A stretch of DNA of 64,000 bases from assembly GCF_000735525.1 (NCBI RefSeq), contig NZ_JMPR01000054.1, positions 1 through 64,000 of the forward strand, in the 5' to 3' direction. The notes beneath the pieces were generated by a model that searched no databases, was not told the DNA's origin, and was given only the letters and a program-made list of their open reading frames with translations. The DNA is from Tatumella ptyseos ATCC 33301 (GTDB taxonomy: Bacteria; Pseudomonadota; Gammaproteobacteria; Enterobacterales; Enterobacteriaceae). Below are positions 8,509 through 48,299 of this stretch, in pieces (position 1 is the stretch's first letter; each line of letters begins with the position of its first letter). A program made the translations under genes and the position numbers.

Positions 8509-11500
8509 ATGAGCAAACTACTGGATAAACTCCGCTACTTTAAGCAAAAAGGCAGCACGTTTTCAAAAGATCATGGTCAGACGATGAACAGTAACCGTGA
8601 CTGGGAGGATAGTTATCGGCAGCGCTGGCAGCACGATAAAATTGTCCGTTCTACCCACGGCGTTAACTGTACAGGTTCCTGTAGCTGGAAGATCTATGTA
8701 AAAAACGGTCTGGTGACCTGGGAAACCCAGCAAACTGATTACCCACGTACACGTTCAGACTTACCTAATCACGAACCGCGCGGATGTCCGCGCGGAGCCA
8801 GTTACTCCTGGTATATCTACAGTGCAAACCGCCTCAAATACCCCTTAGTCCGCAAGCAGTTAATCCAGTTATGGCGCGAAGCCCGCCAGGAATTCAGCGA
8901 CCCGGTCGATGCCTGGGACAGTATTGTCCGTGATGAGCAAAAAACTGCCCGCTATAAAAAAGCCCGCGGAAAAGGTGGTTTTGTCCGTTCAGACTGGAAT
9001 GAACTGAACCAGCTAATTGCGGCTGCCAATATCTGGACCGTCAAAAATTATGGCCCGGATCGGGTAGCGGGTTTCTCTCCGATACCGGCCATGTCGATGG
9101 TTTCTTATGCGGCGGGTACACGCTATCTCTCTCTGATGGGAGGCACCTGCCTGAGTTTTTACGACTGGTACTGCGACCTGCCACCGGCTTCCCCGATGAC
9201 ATGGGGTGAACAGACGGATGTGCCTGAATCGGCAGACTGGTATAACTCTGCCTATATCATTGCCTGGGGATCGAATGTCCCGCAAACCCGTACTCCTGAT
9301 GCTCACTTCTTCACTGAAGTCCGGTATAAAGGAACGAAAACTGTCGCCATCACCCCCGATTATGCTGAAGTCGCGAAACTCAGTGACCAATGGCTGGCCC
9401 CCAAACAGGGAACCGATGCGGCTCTGGCGATGGCGATGGGCCATGTCATCCTCAGGGAGTTTCACCTCGATAACCCCAGCGACTATTTTATTAATTATTG
9501 CCGGCGCTACACAGATATGCCGATGCTGGTCGTACTGGAAGAAACCGATGAAGGTTATTACAGCGCAGGCCGTCTGTTAAGAGCCGCTGATCTGGCTGAT
9601 AACCTCGGTGAAAGTAATAATCCGGACTGGAAAACTGTCGCGATTAACCATGACGGACAGTTAGTGATCCCAAATGGTTCAGCGGGTTTCCGCTGGGGAC
9701 AGAAAGGCGGGTGGAACCTGGAGGCCCGTGCAGGCGGACAAGAGACTACATTACGCCTCAGCCTGGCAGAAGATTATGATCAACTGGCAGAAGTGGCCTT
9801 CCCTTATTTCGGTGGCCAGCAATCACCACATTTTCGCCATGTCGAACACTCTCCGGTACTGGTCCATACCTTACCGGCAAAACTGTTGACTCTTGCTGAC
9901 GGTACACAGGCGAAGGTCGTGAGCGTTTATGATCTTACCTTAGGGAATTACGGCATCGATCGCGATTGGGGCGATACTCAGGCCGCCACCTCCTATGATG
10001 AAATAAAAGCCTACTCCCCGGCATGGGCAGAACAAATCTGTGGCGTTCCCCGGGATCAGATTATCCGCATCGCGCGCGAGTTTGCCGACACAGCACACAA
10101 GACCCACGGTCGCTCTATGATAATCGTCGGTGCCGGTATGAACCACTGGTACCACATGGATATGAATTACCGCGGCCTGATGAACATGCTGATCTTCTGC
10201 GGCTGTGTCGGGCAAAGCGGCGGTGGCTGGGCGCATTATGTCGGTCAGGAAAAACTGCGACCACAAACCGGCTGGCAACCGCTGGCATTTGCGCTGGACT
10301 GGACCCGTCCGCCACGCCATATGAACGGGACGTCCTTTTTCTATAATCACTCCAGCCAGTGGCGCTACGAGAAACTCTCCACACAGGAGTTGTTATCTCC
10401 GCTGGCAGATAAAAAAGCCTTCAGCGGCCAGTTGATTGATTTTAACATCCGTGCTGAACGAATGGGCTGGTTGCCGTCTTCGCCGCAACTGAATACTAAC
10501 CCTCTGACCATTGCTTCAATGGCCCAAAAGGCCGGCGTATCCCCGGTTGATTATACCGTTTCGGCACTGAAGGAAGGTGAGTTACGTTTTGCCTGTGAAC
10601 AACCGGACAGCGGTAATAACCATCCCCGAAATTTATTTGTATGGCGCTCAAATCTGCTGGGATCGTCGGCGAAAGGCCATGAATATATGTTGCGTTATCT
10701 GTTAGGGATAGACAGCGGTATCCAGGGCGATGAAACCGTAGCAGACCCGGAAATGTCTCCGGAAGAAGCAGACTGGCAGACTCCCGCCCGGGAAGGAAAA
10801 CTGGACCTGCTGGTGACACTCGACTTCAGGATGTCCAGTACCTGCCTGTTTTCCGATATCGTTTTACCGACGGCCACCTGGTATGAAAAAGACGATATGA
10901 ATACGTCGGATATGCATCCCTTTATCCATCCGCTGTCGGCAGCCGTCGACCCGGTATGGGAATCCCGCAGTGACTGGGAAATCTACAAAGAGATTGCCAG
11001 AACCTTCTCTGAACTCTGTCCGGGTCACCTCGGGGTAGAGAAAGATGTGGTGCTGTTACCTATCCAGCATGACTCCCCTGCAGAACTGTCGCAACCTTAC
11101 GAGGTGAAACAGTGGCACAAAGGTGAATGCGAACTGCAACCGGGTAAAACGGCACCGCATATCATGGTGGTTGAACGTGACTACCCCGCCCTCAGTGAAC
11201 GATTCACCTCTGTCGGTCCGTTACTTGAAAAGCTGGGTAATGGCGGCAAAGGGATCTCCTGGAACACAGATAAGGAAGTCGAACTGCTGCGTCAGCTGAA
11301 TCACACCCGGGCTGAAGGCGCAGGCAAAGGTCAGCCACAGCTTGATACGGCCATTGATGCCGCAGAGATGATCCTGGCACTGGCCCCGGAAACTAACGGA
11401 CAAGTCGCCGTAAAAGCCTGGGAGGCTCTGGGTGAAATTACCGGACGCGACCATACCCATCTAGCCCTGCCAAAACAGGAAGAGAAGATCCGTTTTCGTG

Positions 11501-39092: not shown

Positions 39093-41078
39093 TCAGAAAT
39101 TATAATTGGCTCCCAGGTAATAACGACGTCCGTCAAGAGTCGCTGAATAGTTTTCATAGCTGATAGTTTTATCCAGCAGGTTATAAATCCCCGTGAGCAG
39201 TGATAATGATTCAGTCACAGAGTAATTAATACCAGTATCAACAAAACTATAAGAGGGCGTTCCTTCCGCCATACTTGTGCGGCTCAGATACTCCGACGTT
39301 CTGCTCCGGAAGTTTATCCGGCTCCATACGGACAGATCCCGGGTTGCTTGCCAGTTCAGTGTCATATTAACCATATGTTTTGGCATTTTATTGAGTGGCT
39401 TGCCGGAAAACTGCCCGGTTTTCTGCTCAGAATCTGTATACGTATAGTTACCGGTCAGTTTCCAGCCTTCTGCGGGTTTCCATCCCAGAGTCGCCTCCGC
39501 ACCACGCAGAGTCGCCTTATCCACATTGACACGGTCACTGACAAAATCGTAATGCGTACTGCCAATGGTACAGGCGGGGTCTGCACTACTATTGCACCGA
39601 CGAACTTCGGTAATTTTATTTTTAAAATCGGTATTAAATAGCGTTAATCCGGCATTCAATTGATGACCGTTATCCCATAGCAGCGCTATTTCTTCGCTCA
39701 GGCTCTTCTCGGGTTTTAGATCAGGGTTACCGACAATAATTCCGTTTGACCGCCCTCCTCCGGTGGTCTGCCCCCAACTGGCGGAGGACTGACGCAGATC
39801 GGGTGAGCGATAACCCGCTGAAATACCGCCTTTTATTGTCCACTGGTCGTTCAGGTGCCAGACACCATAGCCTCGCGGGGTCCAGTGTGTTCCATAGTTC
39901 TGGTCTTTATCCATCCGCATTCCACCGGTCAGCGAAAAACTCCGGGTTATTGCCCACTCATCTTCCGCAAAAACAGCCCAGCTCCAGCGTGTCAGTTTAT
40001 TCAGTCCCGCGGCCGCTTCTAACTGGTTTCCGTCATCATGGAGTTTTTCATAACCATACTGTCCGCCCAAAGTGATCGAATGCTCATCCAGCAGCCATTG
40101 GCCCTGAGTATTCAGTGTAGTGTTATAAGATTTCATTGCGCGGCCGGGATTATTAGTTTCCTCCCGTTGCAGATAGCTGCTGGTATTCAGCTCATCATAA
40201 TATCCATGATGCGTCAGCGCATAAGTCGTGTGTTCATAACGGTTTTCACTGCGGCTGTTCGGCGTACATACGGTGCCCCGACAGCTCTCCACTGCCTGAG
40301 ATTTTCCGGGAGTACTGTTTCTGTCCTGAAGCTCTCTGGCAATATCCACACTCATACGGTTTCTGTCATCAGGTGTCAGGGTGAGCGTCGCGGCACCATT
40401 GCGCATCCGCTGCTCGTTATAGCCATTGACTACCCTGTCTTCCTGACGTCGGGAGAGTAACCCGCTGAGTTTCATATCCAGCAGCCCGTCAATCAACGGG
40501 CCGGAAACATAGGCATCCGTCTGATAAAGATCTCCGGAGCGACGATGTTCCTGAAAAGTGGCTTCCGAATGCAGTGATCCCAGCCAGTTACCACGGTTAT
40601 AGGTTTTTTTGGTGATCACATTAATGACCCCTCCCATCGCATCCGAACCATACAGGGAAGACATGGGGCCGCGGATCACTTCTATCCGTTCTATAGATCC
40701 CAGAGGAGGTAACCAGCCCTGCTCAATACCGGCATTATCACTATTTGGCCGGGTTCCCCGCGTACTCACCCGCCGACCATCGACCAGGATAAGAGTGTAC
40801 TGAGAGGACATTCCGCGGATACTGATATCGCTGCTGCTCCCCCCGCCGGTGACGACCACGCCAGGGACATCTTTCAGCGCATCGGTAATATCGCGGTAGG
40901 CTTTGTCTTCGATTTGTTCTCTGGTAACCACAGAGATGGAGGCCGGTGCGTTCTGAATTTTTTGTTCAAAACCCGTCGCAGTGACCACCAGTGTTTCTTT
41001 ATCGGTAGCATCCGCCATTCCGGGGAAAAAGGCCGTTGTCAGTATCACTGCGAACGGTTTTACGCGAAGTATTCTCAT
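39093..41078 (-). CDS. CirA-type TonB-dependent siderophore receptor
   Basis: A 661-residue outer-membrane receptor, near the E. coli CirA length of 663. Signal peptide MRILRVKPFAVIL...MADA is followed by the TonB box ETLVVTA, a plug domain (APASISVVTREQIEDKAYRD, LILVDGRRVSTR, RIEVIRGPMSSLYGSDAMGG) and a 22-strand barrel ending in YNF. Closest family is CirA/FepA-like catecholate receptors. I chose ATG 41078; ATGs at 41084 and 41093 are alternatives with similarly weak ribosome sites. A Fur box about 130 bases upstream predicts expression in low iron. Two CxnC pairs in the extracellular region (CRGTVC, CNSSADPAC) are visible. Confidence 0.88.
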   Translation of the reverse strand: MRILRVKPFAVILTTAFFPGMADATDKETLVVTATGFEQKIQNAPASISVVTREQIEDKAYRDITDALKDVPGVVVTGGGSSSDISIRGMSSQYTLILVDGRRVSTRGTRPNSDNAGIEQGWLPPLGSIERIEVIRGPMSSLYGSDAMGGVINVITKKTYNRGNWLGSLHSEATFQEHRRSGDLYQTDAYVSGPLIDGLLDMKLSGLLSRRQEDRVVNGYNEQRMRNGAATLTLTPDDRNRMSVDIARELQDRNSTPGKSQAVESCRGTVCTPNSRSENRYEHTTYALTHHGYYDELNTSSYLQREETNNPGRAMKSYNTTLNTQGQWLLDEHSITLGGQYGYEKLHDDGNQLEAAAGLNKLTRWSWAVFAEDEWAITRSFSLTGGMRMDKDQNYGTHWTPRGYGVWHLNDQWTIKGGISAGYRSPDLRQSSASWGQTTGGGRSNGIIVGNPDLKPEKSLSEEIALLWDNGHQLNAGLTLFNTDFKNKITEVRRCNSSADPACTIGSTHYDFVSDRVNVDKATLRGAEATLGWKPAEGWKLTGNYTYTDSEQKTGQFSGKPLNKMPKHMVNMTLNWQATRDLSVWSRINFRSRTSEYLSRTSMAEGTPSYSFVDTGINYSVTESLSLLTGIYNLLDKTISYENYSATLDGRRYYLGANYNF

Positions 41079-41207
41079 TATCATCGATTCCATTTGTTGA
41101 TCAAAATGCTTCACCCTCGCCGATGACTGCAAACAGAATGCTCCATGTAACATTTTATTACACCGGCAGATGTTTCCTATTGTACGAACAAACCAATAAA
41201 TGTAAAT

Positions 41208-41226
41208 AATAATGAGAATTAGTATC
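41208..41226 (-). promoter_or_regulatory. Fur box upstream of the TonB receptor
   Basis: AATAATGAGAATTAGTATC matches GATAATGATAATCATTATC at about 14-15 of 19 positions. It is 130 bases before the receptor start in an otherwise gene-free promoter region (41079-41467). Confidence 0.7.
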
Positions 41227-41467
41227 GTTATCACAAGCAGAGATCAACTTCCCTTTATTCTTCTTCTGTATGCTCCCATATCAGAAACGACCTCCGCTCC
41301 GGATATCCCCGGGGAGCGCGCACATTTACTACCCCGCCAGCGATATACTGATAGCGGGTTAACTTAAATAAATTATTTAATATCGCTAATTTCAGACGGG
41401 GTTCTGCCACAGAGAGCAAATGTCCGGAACAAACCCGTGGGCACCGGGTGACCGGATATGCCCCGCC

Positions 41468-43729: not shown

Positions 43730-44395
43730 TCACGTCGGTAATAATAACTTTTTACTCAAATCCTCCCAGTGCTCAACAAATGCATCACGGGCAATATCGA
43801 ACACACGCGTTTCAAGGCAACGTATAAGATGCTCATGTTCAGCCACTAATTCTTTTGAATTCTCGTAGAAGGCATTACGCTGAACCATGAGTAACTCAAT
43901 CTCACCCTCCAAAACGCTATAACTTTTTTGTAACCTGGGACTCAAACTGGCATCGATAATCGCACGATGAAAGGCTCTATCGGCTGCACTCAGGTATGCC
44001 GATGATGCACCCGCAGGAGCCGCACGCATAACTTCAATAGCATCAAGAGCACCTTTAGGGATCAATCCACTGTAGGTAATCATGCGTACCGCTTCGCCTT
44101 CTAAAACCCCGCGAAGCCGCGTCACATCAACAATATCGTTAGGGCCGAATTTTGGTACACAGAACCCTCTGTTCACAATTTGTACCAGCAGTCCCTGGCT
44201 GACTAGAATCTGAGCCGCACTTCTGAATGTCGTTCTGGATACCCCATGCTCTTCTGCCATACGGATGTCACGCAAAAATGAGCCAGGTTCGAACTCACCA
44301 TGCAGGATCCGCTGTCGTATCGTTAAGACAAGTGATTCTAAAGTGGTGGATTTGCTTTCTTCAGAAGACAAAGGTGATTGCAGATGATTTTCCAT
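43730..44395 (-). CDS. GntR-family FCD-domain regulator
   Basis: A 221-residue FadR-subfamily regulator. The N-terminal winged helix has IRQRILHGEFEPGSFLRDIRMAEEHGVSRTTFRSAAQIL; the C-terminal all-helical FCD domain has RLRGVLEGEAVRMI, the metal-binding-like RAFHRAIIDAS and AEHEHLIRCL (three His residues in FCD positions). It is encoded 263 bases downstream of the kinase/phospho-lyase operon on the same strand and is its likely regulator. I chose ATG 44395; an upstream GTG at 44443 would add 16 unrelated residues. No clear ribosome site is visible. Confidence 0.82.
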   Translation of the reverse strand: MENHLQSPLSSEESKSTTLESLVLTIRQRILHGEFEPGSFLRDIRMAEEHGVSRTTFRSAAQILVSQGLLVQIVNRGFCVPKFGPNDIVDVTRLRGVLEGEAVRMITYSGLIPKGALDAIEVMRAAPAGASSAYLSAADRAFHRAIIDASLSPRLQKSYSVLEGEIELLMVQRNAFYENSKELVAEHEHLIRCLETRVFDIARDAFVEHWEDLSKKLLLPT

Positions 44396-44658
44396 GATAT
44401 AACTACATGTTAATGTTGATGATTGCTTAAAAAGAAAACACACTGTGCATTCTGTAGTAAGAAAATAGCAAAAGATTTCAGCAAAAGTTAACCGCCCGGT
44501 GACGACTTCCTTTCCGATAACTGTCTGACCATTCCTTTTCAGACAGCCCCGATATATAAGCAGACCCGAAGCACATTACCATACATTTCGCTGATTACAG
44601 AATTATCAGGGGGCCGGACATGGGTAATGACCGGTACCCTGATAAGGCTCTCACGTAT

Positions 44659-46026
44659 TCAGAGTAACTCTTTTGCAATATCAGAGAAGGTCTCAAGAAA
44701 ACGTGTTACGTCAGATGAATTGAAGACTAACGGAGGACGAATTTTAAGGACATTTCCATCCCCCCCACAGCTGCGAATAAGGATCCTTCTTTCGCGTAAT
44801 TCATCAATGAATTTTTCAGTGCGTAGTTTATCCGGTGATCCGGAATCCCGATCAGCAACGATTTCAACACCGGTATATAATCCGACCCCTCTGATATCAG
44901 ATACATGAGGAGAATTCTTAACGATCTCGTGCAGCCCCTTACGCAGCGCATTCCCCTGGACTATGGCATTTTCCAACAGATTCTCGCTGCTGATCACATC
45001 GAGAACAGCCGCACCCGCCGCGATGGGGAGCTGGCTGGCAGCAAAGGTATTGAAATACCTGCAATTCTGACCAAACTCGTACGCAACCTCGGGGCGGAAA
45101 ACAGTACCCGATAGCGGTAATCCATTGCCCATCGGTTTACCCAGTGTGACGATATCCGGAATAATACCATGACGCTGAAACCCCCACATGGCATCCCCGC
45201 AACGGCCGAATCCTGACTGTACTTCATCTGCGATATAAAGCCCCCCGGCAGCATGAACCTCTTCAATCATGGGTTTCAGATAGCTCGTCGGGTCAGCAAA
45301 AATTCCGTCACTGGTGAACAGGGAGTCTGCCACAAATGCTGCCAGCCCAAAGCCATGCCGGGCAAGTTCAGAGATCCCTCGCTTAATCTCCTTCCTCATA
45401 TACTCATCAATGGAAAGCCCTTCGGCAGCAGCGACACGAGGATCAGGGGCTTCAATAAGAACAACATTGGGTCCGATAGGCGATGTCGGCCCCAGACCAG
45501 GAGAAAAGGAAGCGACTTCACTGGTAATGCCATGATAGGCATTACGGGTAACTATAATCCCCTGATTACGGGTGTAGAATTTCGCGACGCGAATGGCCAG
45601 ATCGTTAGCTTCCGATCCTGAACAGCCGAATGTTACACGGGAGAGTTCCTCCGGGAAGGTAGCGACCAGACGTTCTGCATAGTCAACCAGGCTTTCCTGT
45701 ACATATCGGTTATTGGTGTTGAGTTTCTTAATCTGTGAAGTGATGGCTTCGACAACATGCGGATGCGAGTGACCCACGCATGCCACATTGTTATACGCAT
45801 CAAGAAAGTCATTTCCTTCGCGATCAAACAGATGAGCTCCCCGCCCTTCCACAAATTCAACCGGGTTACGATAGATGAGTGAATATCCCGGCCCCAGAAT
45901 ACTCATTCGCCGTTCCACGATAGAACGCAAGCGTGGCTCAAGGTTATCCATCCGGGAGGGATCAAATTTATTGGGATAAACTTCAAGTGCCCGGCTTACT
46001 TTTGTGTCGTACTTAGGAGTTGTCAT
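44659..46026 (-). CDS. Class III PLP enzyme, AGXT2L-type phospho-lyase
   Basis: A 455-residue fold-type I PLP enzyme. The lysine is in TLGKPMGNGLPLSG, and NNVACVGHSHPHVVEA is near the N-terminus. Both are diagnostic of the AGXT2L subgroup, whose members eliminate phosphate and ammonia from O-phosphorylated amino alcohols (ethanolamine phosphate, 5-phosphohydroxylysine, aminopropanol phosphate) rather than transaminate. EADNDLAIRVAKFYTRN-like and ADEVQSGFGR cofactor motifs are present. It follows the kinase gene by 15 bases, with GGAG ten bases before ATG. The kinase supplies its phosphorylated substrate in this reading; substrate identity is open. Confidence 0.82.
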   Translation of the reverse strand: MTTPKYDTKVSRALEVYPNKFDPSRMDNLEPRLRSIVERRMSILGPGYSLIYRNPVEFVEGRGAHLFDREGNDFLDAYNNVACVGHSHPHVVEAITSQIKKLNTNNRYVQESLVDYAERLVATFPEELSRVTFGCSGSEANDLAIRVAKFYTRNQGIIVTRNAYHGITSEVASFSPGLGPTSPIGPNVVLIEAPDPRVAAAEGLSIDEYMRKEIKRGISELARHGFGLAAFVADSLFTSDGIFADPTSYLKPMIEEVHAAGGLYIADEVQSGFGRCGDAMWGFQRHGIIPDIVTLGKPMGNGLPLSGTVFRPEVAYEFGQNCRYFNTFAASQLPIAAGAAVLDVISSENLLENAIVQGNALRKGLHEIVKNSPHVSDIRGVGLYTGVEIVADRDSGSPDKLRTEKFIDELRERRILIRSCGGDGNVLKIRPPLVFNSSDVTRFLETFSDIAKELL

Positions 46027-46041
46027 TGGTCATTGCTCCGG

Positions 46042-47133
46042 TCAGAAAGATGACGTTGCAGATAGGTGATGGATGCGCGCCTGCACATCTGAAACGGGCG
46101 TCGCCAGCGCCATCGCGAGGTTGTCCCGGTCATGTTTTGCATGAGATTCAATATATTCCCGGCGGTCAGGGAGACGTTGTGCTCTCCATTGAGAAACCAC
46201 CGCACGTAATGCCAGACGAGCAGTAGCCGCATCAGCAATGAGTACCGCATGCGCTGGTGACATTTGATAGCTCGACAGATATCCCCGCAGATAAGCCAGG
46301 GGAGCCCCCCAGGGGTCATCAGCCCATTTGCCCAGGAGATTACATACGCTTACGGCGGGTTCAAATATCACACACGTCCGAACTGCGTCACCAAAATCAA
46401 TTATTCCACTGACAAAATCCGCCGACTCTGCAGAGACTAAGACGTTGTAAGGGCTGAAATCCCCATGTATTACCTGGGTTTCAAGTTCTCCCATCAGAGG
46501 GACCACATTGCGTGTAAACCGCTCAAAAGCTTCAGCGGCTAATGCCCGAAGATTTTCATCTGTTAATTCTTCCTGCAGAATTTCCAGCGTTGGAACATTT
46601 GCAAGATCCCATACCAAAGGATGCAAATCATGTTGATGAGCAAATCCCCGCAATGCCATATCAATCTCACCGGCAGCGCGCCCTGTTAAGATAAGCTGCT
46701 CCTCGTCAACCGGAACAGTTGCCATAATGTCACCGGAGATATAGGTCAATACCCGTAAATAACGAACAGATTTTGTTTGAATTGGAACAATGCTCTCGCC
46801 ATCCAGGGTGGTAATAACATTCTGCACTTCCCAGGCCGAAGTGTGGTTATTAAGCCATTCCATTACGGCCGACTGCATTTCCACGACTCCACGTGATTCG
46901 CCGGATGATGATATTTTTACGAGGCGATGACCCCCGTCGCAAGTCAGAATAAAACTGTCATCTTTTTCAGTAGGTAACCGTCTTAATTCACCCTCCAGTC
47001 CGTATCTGATATTTAAGATATTTTTTACCAGAGCCGGAGATATTTCATCCTTTCCATTCACCAGACCACTTTCATCAAGAAGGCTGAGTGCAGCTGAGAG
47101 CCTGGATTTTTTGATTGCATCATTGGTTATCAT
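46042..47133 (-). CDS. APH-family small-molecule kinase
   Basis: A 363-residue protein kinase-like-fold phosphotransferase. The catalytic loop is VIHGDFSPYNVLVS and the metal motif is GIIDFGD; the ATP-lysine is probably in HRLVKISSS. It resembles the hydroxylysine kinase/choline kinase-like group more than antibiotic kinases. First gene of a kinase to phospho-lyase operon, a combination known from animals (AGPHD1 with AGXT2L2) and from amino-alcohol degradation. A role in resistance is less likely given the partner. AGAG lies eight bases upstream of the ATG. Confidence 0.8.
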   Translation of the reverse strand: MITNDAIKKSRLSAALSLLDESGLVNGKDEISPALVKNILNIRYGLEGELRRLPTEKDDSFILTCDGGHRLVKISSSGESRGVVEMQSAVMEWLNNHTSAWEVQNVITTLDGESIVPIQTKSVRYLRVLTYISGDIMATVPVDEEQLILTGRAAGEIDMALRGFAHQHDLHPLVWDLANVPTLEILQEELTDENLRALAAEAFERFTRNVVPLMGELETQVIHGDFSPYNVLVSAESADFVSGIIDFGDAVRTCVIFEPAVSVCNLLGKWADDPWGAPLAYLRGYLSSYQMSPAHAVLIADAATARLALRAVVSQWRAQRLPDRREYIESHAKHDRDNLAMALATPVSDVQARIHHLSATSSF

Positions 47134-47331
47134 AGTTTCTCTGCTTTTGATTTTTTAAACATAAAAAATATGCCCTTTCTCACAGAGGACAGCACTCAAA
47201 ATTCTGACTTAAGCGATCAAAAATCAGCTCCCCGCCAGGAGACAACACCACACAAATTGTCCATCAGTTTGCAGAGTCAAAATAAACATAACACCCGCCA
47301 CCGCGAAAAAGCAAGATGTCATTACCTTATT

Positions 47332-47342
47332 TTGTTGGACAA
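47332..47342. promoter_or_regulatory. TTGTTGGACAA, operator candidate A
   Basis: An imperfect 5-1-5 inverted repeat 199 bases upstream of the kinase ATG. Ten of 11 bases match the site at 47480. A related half-site TTGTCCATCAG lies at 47258-47268. Confidence 0.45.
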
Positions 47343-47479
47343 TTTAAAGAGGGAGAGAAAAGTGCATGGTAATCACTTTTATGGTGCGTAACTTACCGAT
47401 AATGGTTCAAAAAAACATGATTTTGTGCATTTCTGCCACATAATAGTGCACTGCCTTATCGTGTTATCCCGATACATTT

Positions 47480-47490
47480 TTGTCGGACAA
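47480..47490. promoter_or_regulatory. TTGTCGGACAA, operator candidate B
   Basis: A perfect 5-1-5 palindrome 148 bases upstream of site A. FCD-type GntR regulators bind short palindromes of this kind, and one such regulator is encoded at the far end of this operon. Confidence 0.45.
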
Positions 47491-48223: not shown

Positions 48224-48299
48224 TGGTGCCCGAACTCGGAATCGAACCAAGGACACGGGGATTTTCAATCCCCTGCTCTACCGACTGAGCTATTCGGGC
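48224..48299 (-). tRNA. tRNA-Phe (anticodon GAA)
   Basis: A 76-nt cloverleaf with encoded CCA. Acceptor stem GCCCGAA/TTCGGGC, D-arm GCTC...GAGC, anticodon stem GGGGA/TCCCC with loop TTGAAAA (anticodon GAA at 48264-48266), T-arm CTTGG-TTCGATT-CCGAG. It differs from E. coli tRNA-Phe by the compensated pair near the acceptor end (GAA/TTC for GGA/TCC). Confidence 0.98.

What the first reader, a model, noticed from the sequence alone, without database searches (positions are those of the whole stretch)
43730..47490. Kinase plus phospho-lyase operon for amino-alcohol or hydroxylysine breakdown
An APH-type kinase is followed directly by an AGXT2L-type PLP enzyme (GKPMGNG motif), then an FCD regulator. 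In animals hydroxylysine kinase and phosphohydroxylysine lyase form such a pair, and Erwinia and Pseudomonas were long ago shown to degrade amino alcohols such as 1-amino-2-propanol by kinase and phospho-lyase steps whose genes are still poorly assigned. This operon is a good candidate for those genes.
Basis: partly seen in the sequence, partly recalled or inferred. Interest (0 to 1): 0.75.

Follow-up and report, generated by a model that had tools for sequence, protein, structure and literature searches.

The report
Amino-alcohol kinase and phospho-lyase operon
Two neighbouring bacterial genes very probably break down an amino alcohol by first phosphorylating it and then splitting off phosphate and ammonia, and comparison with other bacteria suggests they belong to a larger, uncharacterised pathway for digesting a plant-derived nitrogen compound rather than simple ethanolamine.

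Summary
In detail: an APH-family kinase, a PLP phospho-lyase and a GntR/FCD regulator lie in a row in a Tatumella-like genome. The lyase falls in the phospho-lyase clade (best solved relatives 5g4i and human ETNPPL). A scan by the regulator alone gave 40 named loci (three are seed genomes), mostly Pseudomonas, rhizobia and Burkholderiales; 39 have kinase and lyase beside it, and all 39 have a palindrome TTGT-N3-ACAA within 500 nt upstream of the kinase match (73 sites in 19.5 kb; 8 in 749 kb elsewhere). 37 of 40 add a HAD hydrolase whose nearest solved relatives are azetidine-2-carboxylate hydrolase and 8hp5; fewer add FAD oxidases, aldehyde dehydrogenase and an opine/peptide-type importer. 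The own genome keeps such genes in a separate operon. So the pair probably handles an amino-hydroxy intermediate of a plant opine-like compound; azetidine compounds such as nicotianamine are my boldest guess. The ethanolamine/aminopropanol role fits other loci of this genome better: an APH kinase beside an ethanolamine permease (C46) and a second phospho-lyase (C13); that kinase is in 11 of 13 lyase-positive and 0 of 20 lyase-negative genomes that I chose. No substrate was tested.

The parts
46042..47133 (-). KIN: APH-family small-molecule kinase, 363 aa, first gene of the operon
   Evidence: NCBIfam best is the kinase part of the PRK06148 fusion (168 bits, below its cut-off of 1128)
44659..46026 (-). 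LYASE: class-III PLP enzyme of the ethanolamine-phosphate phospho-lyase clade, 455 aa
   Evidence: best PDB 5g4i (E 2.5e-97) and 6tor human ETNPPL (E 1.4e-86)
43730..44443 (-). FCD: GntR/FCD-family regulator (true start may be the ATG at 44395)
   Evidence: orthologues 55-60% identical beside KIN-LYASE in other families of the same phylum
47332..47342 (.). palindrome TTGTTGGACAA upstream of KIN, putative FCD operator (binding not tested)
   Evidence: a site stands at a like distance in Tatumella sp. JGM118 (L026, L100)
47480..47490 (.). second palindrome TTGTCGGACAA, putative FCD operator (binding not tested)
48224..48299 (-). tRNA-Phe: conserved anchor; the DNA beyond it, where the operon lies, differs among the species of the genus that were compared

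Best explanation
KIN uses ATP to phosphorylate the hydroxyl of an amino alcohol or amino-hydroxy acid; LYASE forms a PLP imine with the amine and eliminates phosphate and ammonia, leaving an aldehyde or semialdehyde for an aldehyde dehydrogenase. FCD senses a pathway compound and acts through TTGT-N3-ACAA sites upstream of KIN. The trio is the last, transferable part of a larger pathway for a plant-derived opine-like nitrogen compound: importer, FAD amine oxidases, a HAD-type C-X hydrolase that makes the hydroxyl, then KIN, LYASE and aldehyde dehydrogenase. In this genome the upstream part is an unlinked operon (contig C35). Shown: gene content, homology, conserved neighbourhood, conserved palindrome. 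Inferred: the reactions, their order, the substrate, and that FCD binds the palindrome.
For: LYASE shares signature blocks with 5g4i and human ETNPPL that two ordinary class-III aminotransferases lack, and falls in their clade, 100/99. KIN and LYASE form one 867-aa ORF in Burkholderia sp. OK233 and Paraburkholderia polaris and match opposite ends of the PRK06148 fusion model. Of the 40 regulator loci, three (L100, L103, L108) are genomes that seeded the query. Within 10 kb: LYASE 40 (in L138 only a 27% one), KIN 39, HAD 37, GNAT 21, ALDH 18, FAD1 15. Palindrome upstream of KIN: 39 of 39. P. viridiflava (L101, L137) and Paraburkholderia guartelaensis (L123) carry, in the same cluster, FAD1 and the whole importer of the C35 operon at 47-62% identity (the L123 ATPase is cut by the locus end). 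In 7 plasmid regions opened of 19 hits, HAD, phosphotransferase, aminotransferase and GntR regulator lie together in 7. The C35 HAD is 50% identical to the P. viridiflava HAD.
Against: Two other species of the genus (G001, G002) have the C35-type operon without FCD (E 1e-20) or a near LYASE, so the upstream genes can exist without the trio. No TTGT-N3-ACAA site was found upstream of the C35-type operon in the own genome, G003, G001 (L155) or G002, so co-regulation of the two halves is not shown. KIN is about 30% identical to 14 other FCD-linked kinases, which resemble each other at 47% or more, and has HGD where nine aligned ones have HND; LYASE sits on a long branch and its grouping with the FCD-linked lyases is 93/90. 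Its substrate may differ from theirs.
Confidence: 0.6

Rival explanations
1. One reading: the operon degrades free ethanolamine, 1-amino-2-propanol or 5-hydroxylysine.
For: The lyase is nearest to an enzyme deposited as a phospholyase and to human ethanolamine-phosphate phospho-lyase. FAD1 of the C35 operon weakly resembles pipecolate oxidase AmaA (157 bits, cut-off 600), which could suit a lysine-type compound. In Tatumella sp. JGM118 genes for 3-hydroxyproline breakdown lie downstream of FCD.
Against: For ethanolamine: kinase and ethanolamine permease at C46 and the second lyase at C13 already form that set; the only permease over the cut-off in the genome is on C46, not near the window operon. 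For hydroxylysine: the HAD hydrolase and opine-type importer have no evident role (inference).
Confidence: 0.2
2. The intermediate is a homoserine- or threonine-type hydroxy amino acid, with KIN acting as a homoserine-kinase relative.
For: After the fusion models, homoserine kinase is the best NCBIfam match of KIN (25 bits, E 8e-6); rhizobial and related plasmid clusters also carry threonine aldolase, threonine dehydratase and in one case thrC.
Against: The homoserine kinase score is far below its cut-off of 271. The threonine-dehydratase cluster was labelled in none of the 12 Pseudomonas rows nor in the Tatumella row; threonine aldolase and thrC were not searched for there.
Confidence: 0.1
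3. LYASE is an ordinary aminotransferase and KIN an unrelated neighbour.
For: Orthologues on rhizobial plasmids are annotated as aspartate aminotransferase family protein or similar.
Against: Phospho-lyase signature blocks, tree position, fusion and conserved pairing.
Confidence: 0.05

Closest known systems
Ethanolamine-phosphate phospho-lyase (human ETNPPL, 6tor) and the phospholyase 5g4i/5g4j (source Arthrobacter by recall)
   Same: Same class-III PLP family and shared signature blocks
   Different: Encoded beside a kinase and an FCD regulator; substrate unknown; separate long branch of the clade
PRK06148/PRK06149 fusion proteins (kinase and aminotransferase ends; a middle peptidase domain is recalled)
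   Same: KIN matches the N-terminal part of PRK06148 (positions 10-310), LYASE the C-terminal part (586-1009)
   Different: Two separate genes; both scores far below the family cut-offs
Vertebrate hydroxylysine kinase plus 5-phosphohydroxylysine lyase pair (Veiga-da-Cunha 2012; recalled, only its citation seen in PMC8154272)
   Same: Same two-step logic
   Different: No sequence comparison was made; the PDB search of KIN found nothing at E 0.001
L-azetidine-2-carboxylate hydrolase (3smv, 8ywo)
   Same: Best solved relative of the Tatumella HAD (30% identity, E 5e-23)
   Different: 8hp5, deposited as a haloacid dehalogenase, scores about as well and is first for the Rhizobium HAD; the Pseudomonas A2C route is said to continue by transamination (PMC8016842, passages)
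Staphylopine, nickel and opine ABC importers (CntD, NikDE, AgaA)
   Same: C35 ATPase matches CntD at 382.8 bits (cut-off 380); binding protein is nearest to Opp5A/NikA in NCBIfam and has AgaA and a nickel-binding protein among its first five PDB matches
   Different: The ATPase score sums two domains; the binding protein is far below every cut-off, and its best PDB match is 1uqw (YliB, glutathione-type by recall)

Membership tests
Phospho-lyase clade of class-III PLP enzymes (ETNPPL/5g4i type) | Signature blocks NNVxxVGH, GKPMGNG, FNT(F/Y), LK(I/M)(R/K)PP | tested here: met
   aligned with 5g4i, 6tor and two ordinary aminotransferases; the blocks are my own reading of that alignment, not a published definition
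Phospho-lyase clade of class-III PLP enzymes (ETNPPL/5g4i type) | Falls inside the clade in a tree | tested here: met
   100/99 for the 26-row clade against two outgroup rows; the tool warns that long rows (both outgroups, 5g4i, 6tor) are placed unsurely
Phospho-lyase clade of class-III PLP enzymes (ETNPPL/5g4i type) | Releases phosphate and ammonia from an O-phospho amino alcohol | not testable with these tools
   needs an enzyme assay
PRK06148 / PRK06149 fusion families (NCBIfam) | Score over the curated cut-off as one protein | tested here: not met
   LYASE 434 and KIN 168 bits against 1128; 355.5 and 133.7 against 973
APH-type kinases | Pfam APH over its cut-off and catalytic H-D-N / DFG-D residues | tested here: met
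   (72.5 bits, cut-off 23.2)
(R)-1-hydroxy-2-aminoethylphosphonate ammonia-lyase PbfA | NCBIfam NF049939 over cut-off 525 | tested here: not met
   193 bits
Ethanolamine utilisation by kinase and phospho-lyase | Ethanolamine permease next to the genes | tested here: not met
   the only match over the permease cut-off in the genome is on contig C46
Azetidine-2-carboxylate pathway | HAD hydrolase of the azetidine-2-carboxylate hydrolase type in the same pathway | tested here: inconclusive
   first (Tatumella, P. viridiflava) or third row (Rhizobium) among solved relatives, about 30% identity; function not tested

The most novel reading that the evidence does not exclude
The FCD-KIN-LYASE trio, with the HAD hydrolase, FAD oxidases, importer and aldehyde dehydrogenase kept elsewhere in this genome, breaks down azetidine-containing plant metallophores (nicotianamine, mugineic acids) or free azetidine-2-carboxylate: the oxidases cut the aminocarboxypropyl arms, the HAD opens the ring to 4-amino-2-hydroxybutyrate, KIN phosphorylates it, and LYASE converts it to succinate semialdehyde. 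This would supply genes for phytosiderophore breakdown, described in 2021 as unknown (PMC7786132, passages), and would need a gamma-elimination by a phospho-lyase.
Probability: 0.15. Interest if true: 0.85.

Novelty: new variant of a known kind. Interest (0 to 1): 0.58.

Why it matters
It turns a general kinase-plus-lyase guess into two testable assignments: a conserved module with a shared palindrome in many plant-associated bacteria (association judged from species names and plasmid sources), whose substrate is still to be named; and, separately, a kinase-permease-lyase set that is a strong gene candidate for the ethanolamine/amino-alcohol kinase and phospho-lyase activities described decades ago (that history is recalled, not read).

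Tried and rejected
Free ethanolamine as the substrate of the window pair was set aside after the C46/C13 set was found. Regulation of the C35 operon by the same palindrome was looked for and not found. Hydroxyproline linkage: 3-hydroxyproline genes follow FCD in G003 but umuDC follows in the window (names by my reading), so I treat it as a neighbour. A PbfA-type lyase was rejected on score. Searches that gave little: KIN against PDB (nothing); KIN in 369 genomes of the class at E 1e-40 (only the own genome). Literature searches on 1-aminopropan-2-ol and phospho-lyase, hydroxylysine breakdown (26), RB-TnSeq and ethanolamine (27), azetidine hydrolase (49), nicotianamine or phytosiderophore degradation and bacterial ethanolamine kinase with phospho-lyase (98) showed, in the rows listed, no paper that assigns these genes; I judged most from titles and abstracts, and the library lacks most subscription papers. 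Papers seen as passages only: PMC8154272, PMC5821096, PMC9397018, PMC8016842, PMC7786132, PMC11794875. The permease row was translated out of frame and is not used.
Full report
Observation. The three genes are real and in the stated order: KIN 46042-47133, LYASE 44659-46026, FCD 43730-44443, all on the minus strand. KIN is an APH-family kinase and LYASE a class-III PLP enzyme. Both match opposite ends of the PRK06148 fusion model, far below its cut-off. LYASE is closest in the PDB to the phospholyase 5g4i and human ETNPPL. KIN finds no solved relative at E 0.001.

Genome and mobility. The genome is 3.53 Mb in 88 contigs. Of 99 genomes (own included) searched with LYASE at E 1e-80, 13 match; only G003 has a near-identical copy (97%), while these 13 all have a further or only copy at 43-46%. 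DeoD, PBP and tRNA-Phe are found together in L026 (G003), L178 (G001), L179 (G002) and L180 (G004), as in the window, but what follows tRNA-Phe differs, and of these only G003 has the operon there. It looks like a variable tRNA-side region.

The regulator as marker. KIN has no close relatives in broad samples: 1 of 369 genomes of the class at E 1e-40 (the own one), 10 of 394 of the order and 26 of 398 of the phylum at E 1e-25, own included, the others at 34% identity or less. Twenty neighbourhoods from those hits held two with an FCD at 59% and 55% (L090, L099); where other FCD matches appeared they were 29-37%. An alignment of those two with the window and G003 regulators was used to scan the named genome collection: 131 pattern matches, 40 confirmed loci, from Tatumella, Pseudomonas, Rhizobium, Sinorhizobium/Ensifer, Burkholderia, Paraburkholderia, Aureimonas, Frigidibacter and one MAG. 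tblastn matches of at least 60 bits within 10 kb: LYASE 40 of 40 (in L138 only a 27% one), KIN 39, HAD 37, GNAT 21, ALDH 18, FAD1 15, ATPase 9, FAD2 9, binding protein 6, permeases 4 and 4. Without the three seeds KIN is in 36 and HAD in 35 of 37. Matches at 21-39% (ALDH, many ATPases, some FAD1, the L132 importer) may be unrelated members; the close importer (47-62%) is whole in L101, L137 and, cut by the locus end, L123, with binding protein and FAD1 also in L103 and L104. In two Burkholderiales loci KIN and LYASE are one ORF of 867 aa. In the plasmid collection 19 records hold an FCD relative; I opened seven, and all seven show HAD, phosphotransferase, aminotransferase and GntR regulator together. 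The loci are related to each other, so none of these counts is a count of independent events.

Palindrome. TTGT-N3-ACAA occurs in the 500 nt upstream of the KIN match in 39 of 39 loci that have KIN near FCD (L138 has neither): 73 sites in 19.5 kb, against 8 in 749 kb elsewhere in those loci; a first-order Markov expectation for the upstream stretches is 0.29 sites, highest 3 in 200 trials. The window has two sites there, 47332 and 47480, of four in 64 kb where 1.05 are expected. That FCD binds them is inference.

The rest of the pathway. The HAD (haloacid dehalogenase type II) of the P. viridiflava module has one homologue at E 1e-10 in the own genome, 50% identical, at C35:266114-266770. It lies in a run ALDH-HAD-FAD1-binding protein-permease-permease-ATPase-FAD2-GNAT, conserved in G001, G002 and G003; G004 and G005 have no such HAD at E 1e-20. 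In G003 a GhrA-like dehydrogenase follows (196.5 bits, cut-off 403). In P. viridiflava the same importer and FAD1 lie in one cluster with FCD-KIN-LYASE-HAD, with an acetylornithine-deacetylase-type M20 enzyme over its cut-off and a flavoprotein with a BFD-like domain. In rhizobial clusters an SSADH-type dehydrogenase (563 bits, cut-off 646), a tartrate dehydrogenase (587, cut-off 470), and ornithine-cyclodeaminase and threonine-dehydratase relatives recur.

What the HAD suggests. The best solved relatives of the Tatumella HAD are L-azetidine-2-carboxylate hydrolase 3smv (E 5e-23) and 8hp5, deposited as haloacid dehalogenase (E 5.6e-20), with their variants; other dehalogenases and epoxide hydrolases follow at about 1e-8. 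For the Rhizobium HAD 8hp5 comes first (2e-20 against 2.3e-19), for the P. viridiflava HAD they tie. Identity to 3smv is 29-36% over eight HADs. The passages read of PMC8016842 say that the Pseudomonas A2C enzyme makes 2-hydroxy-4-aminobutyrate, which then undergoes transamination. Phosphorylation and elimination instead would give succinate semialdehyde, in keeping with the SSADH-type gene of the rhizobial clusters, but would need a gamma- rather than beta-elimination. The importer ATPase passes the CntD (staphylopine) cut-off narrowly, with two domains summed, and also passes NikD and NikE cut-offs; the binding protein is nearest in the PDB to YliB, with AgaA third. Hence nicotianamine or mugineic acids are a possible, unproven, starting compound. 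[quoted passage not shown]

The ethanolamine question. The second lyase of the own genome (C13:72411-73679, 45% identical to LYASE) belongs to a separate branch, present at 69-100% identity in all 13 lyase-positive genomes. In G021 an AraC-type regulator, an APH kinase, an ethanolamine permease (613 bits, cut-off 382) and this kind of lyase form one cluster. In the own genome the regulator (66% identical to that of G021), the kinase (59%) and a permease (620.7 bits, cut-off 381.75) are together on C46. In 33 genomes that I chose (all 13 with a lyase hit, and 20 of the 86 without), the kinase at E 1e-60 is in 11 of 13 and 0 of 20. The two lyase-positive genomes without it are G027, where a phosphonate-type binding protein (343.7 bits, cut-off 392.75) lies beside the lyase, and G031, whose lyase is split. 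Against a clean picture, G059 has the kinase but a lyase with six in-frame stops. Six of the 13 are one genus.

Verdict. Phospho-lyase membership is well supported; the regulator-palindrome-kinase-lyase module is solid; its link to the C35 pathway is good but indirect; the substrate is open. The main points against are that G001 and G002 have the C35-type operon without FCD or a near LYASE, that no palindrome precedes that operon, and that KIN and LYASE of Tatumella are divergent members.

Noticed in passing
own genome contig C46:62755-65368 (L177:6531-10390) and C13:72411-73679: AraC-type regulator, APH kinase and ethanolamine permease on C46 and a second phospho-lyase on C13: strong candidate genes for ethanolamine breakdown by kinase and phospho-lyase; the kinase is in 11 of 13 lyase-positive and 0 of 20 lyase-negative genomes chosen.
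   Followed up: partly
L148:1340-2672 (own genome C35): FAD2 reads as two overlapping ORFs, while G003 has one 443-aa ORF (L158:16309-17640): a frameshift or an assembly error.
   Followed up: no
L026:11331-18987 (G003, Tatumella sp. JGM118): Downstream of FCD lie an amino-acid ABC importer and trans-3- and cis-3-hydroxy-L-proline dehydratases, both dehydratases over NCBIfam cut-offs; not at that place in the window.
   Followed up: partly
L156:7677-13096 (G001 C40): A second HAD-FAD1-binding protein set stands next to ACC deaminase (654 bits, cut-off 392) and has a TTGTCCGACAA site upstream of HAD at 8800, although G001 has no FCD orthologue at E 1e-20.
   Followed up: no
window 39093-41234 and L148:15209-17401: TonB-dependent receptors lie near both halves of the proposed pathway; their substrates are unknown and the nearness may be chance.
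   Followed up: no
L112, L116, L126, L128, L129, L134, L141, L145: These rhizobial clusters hold a second, diverged kinase (in L112, L116, L128, L129, L141 and L145 also a lyase, HAD and Lrp regulator), several near ornithine-cyclodeaminase and threonine-dehydratase relatives.
   Followed up: no
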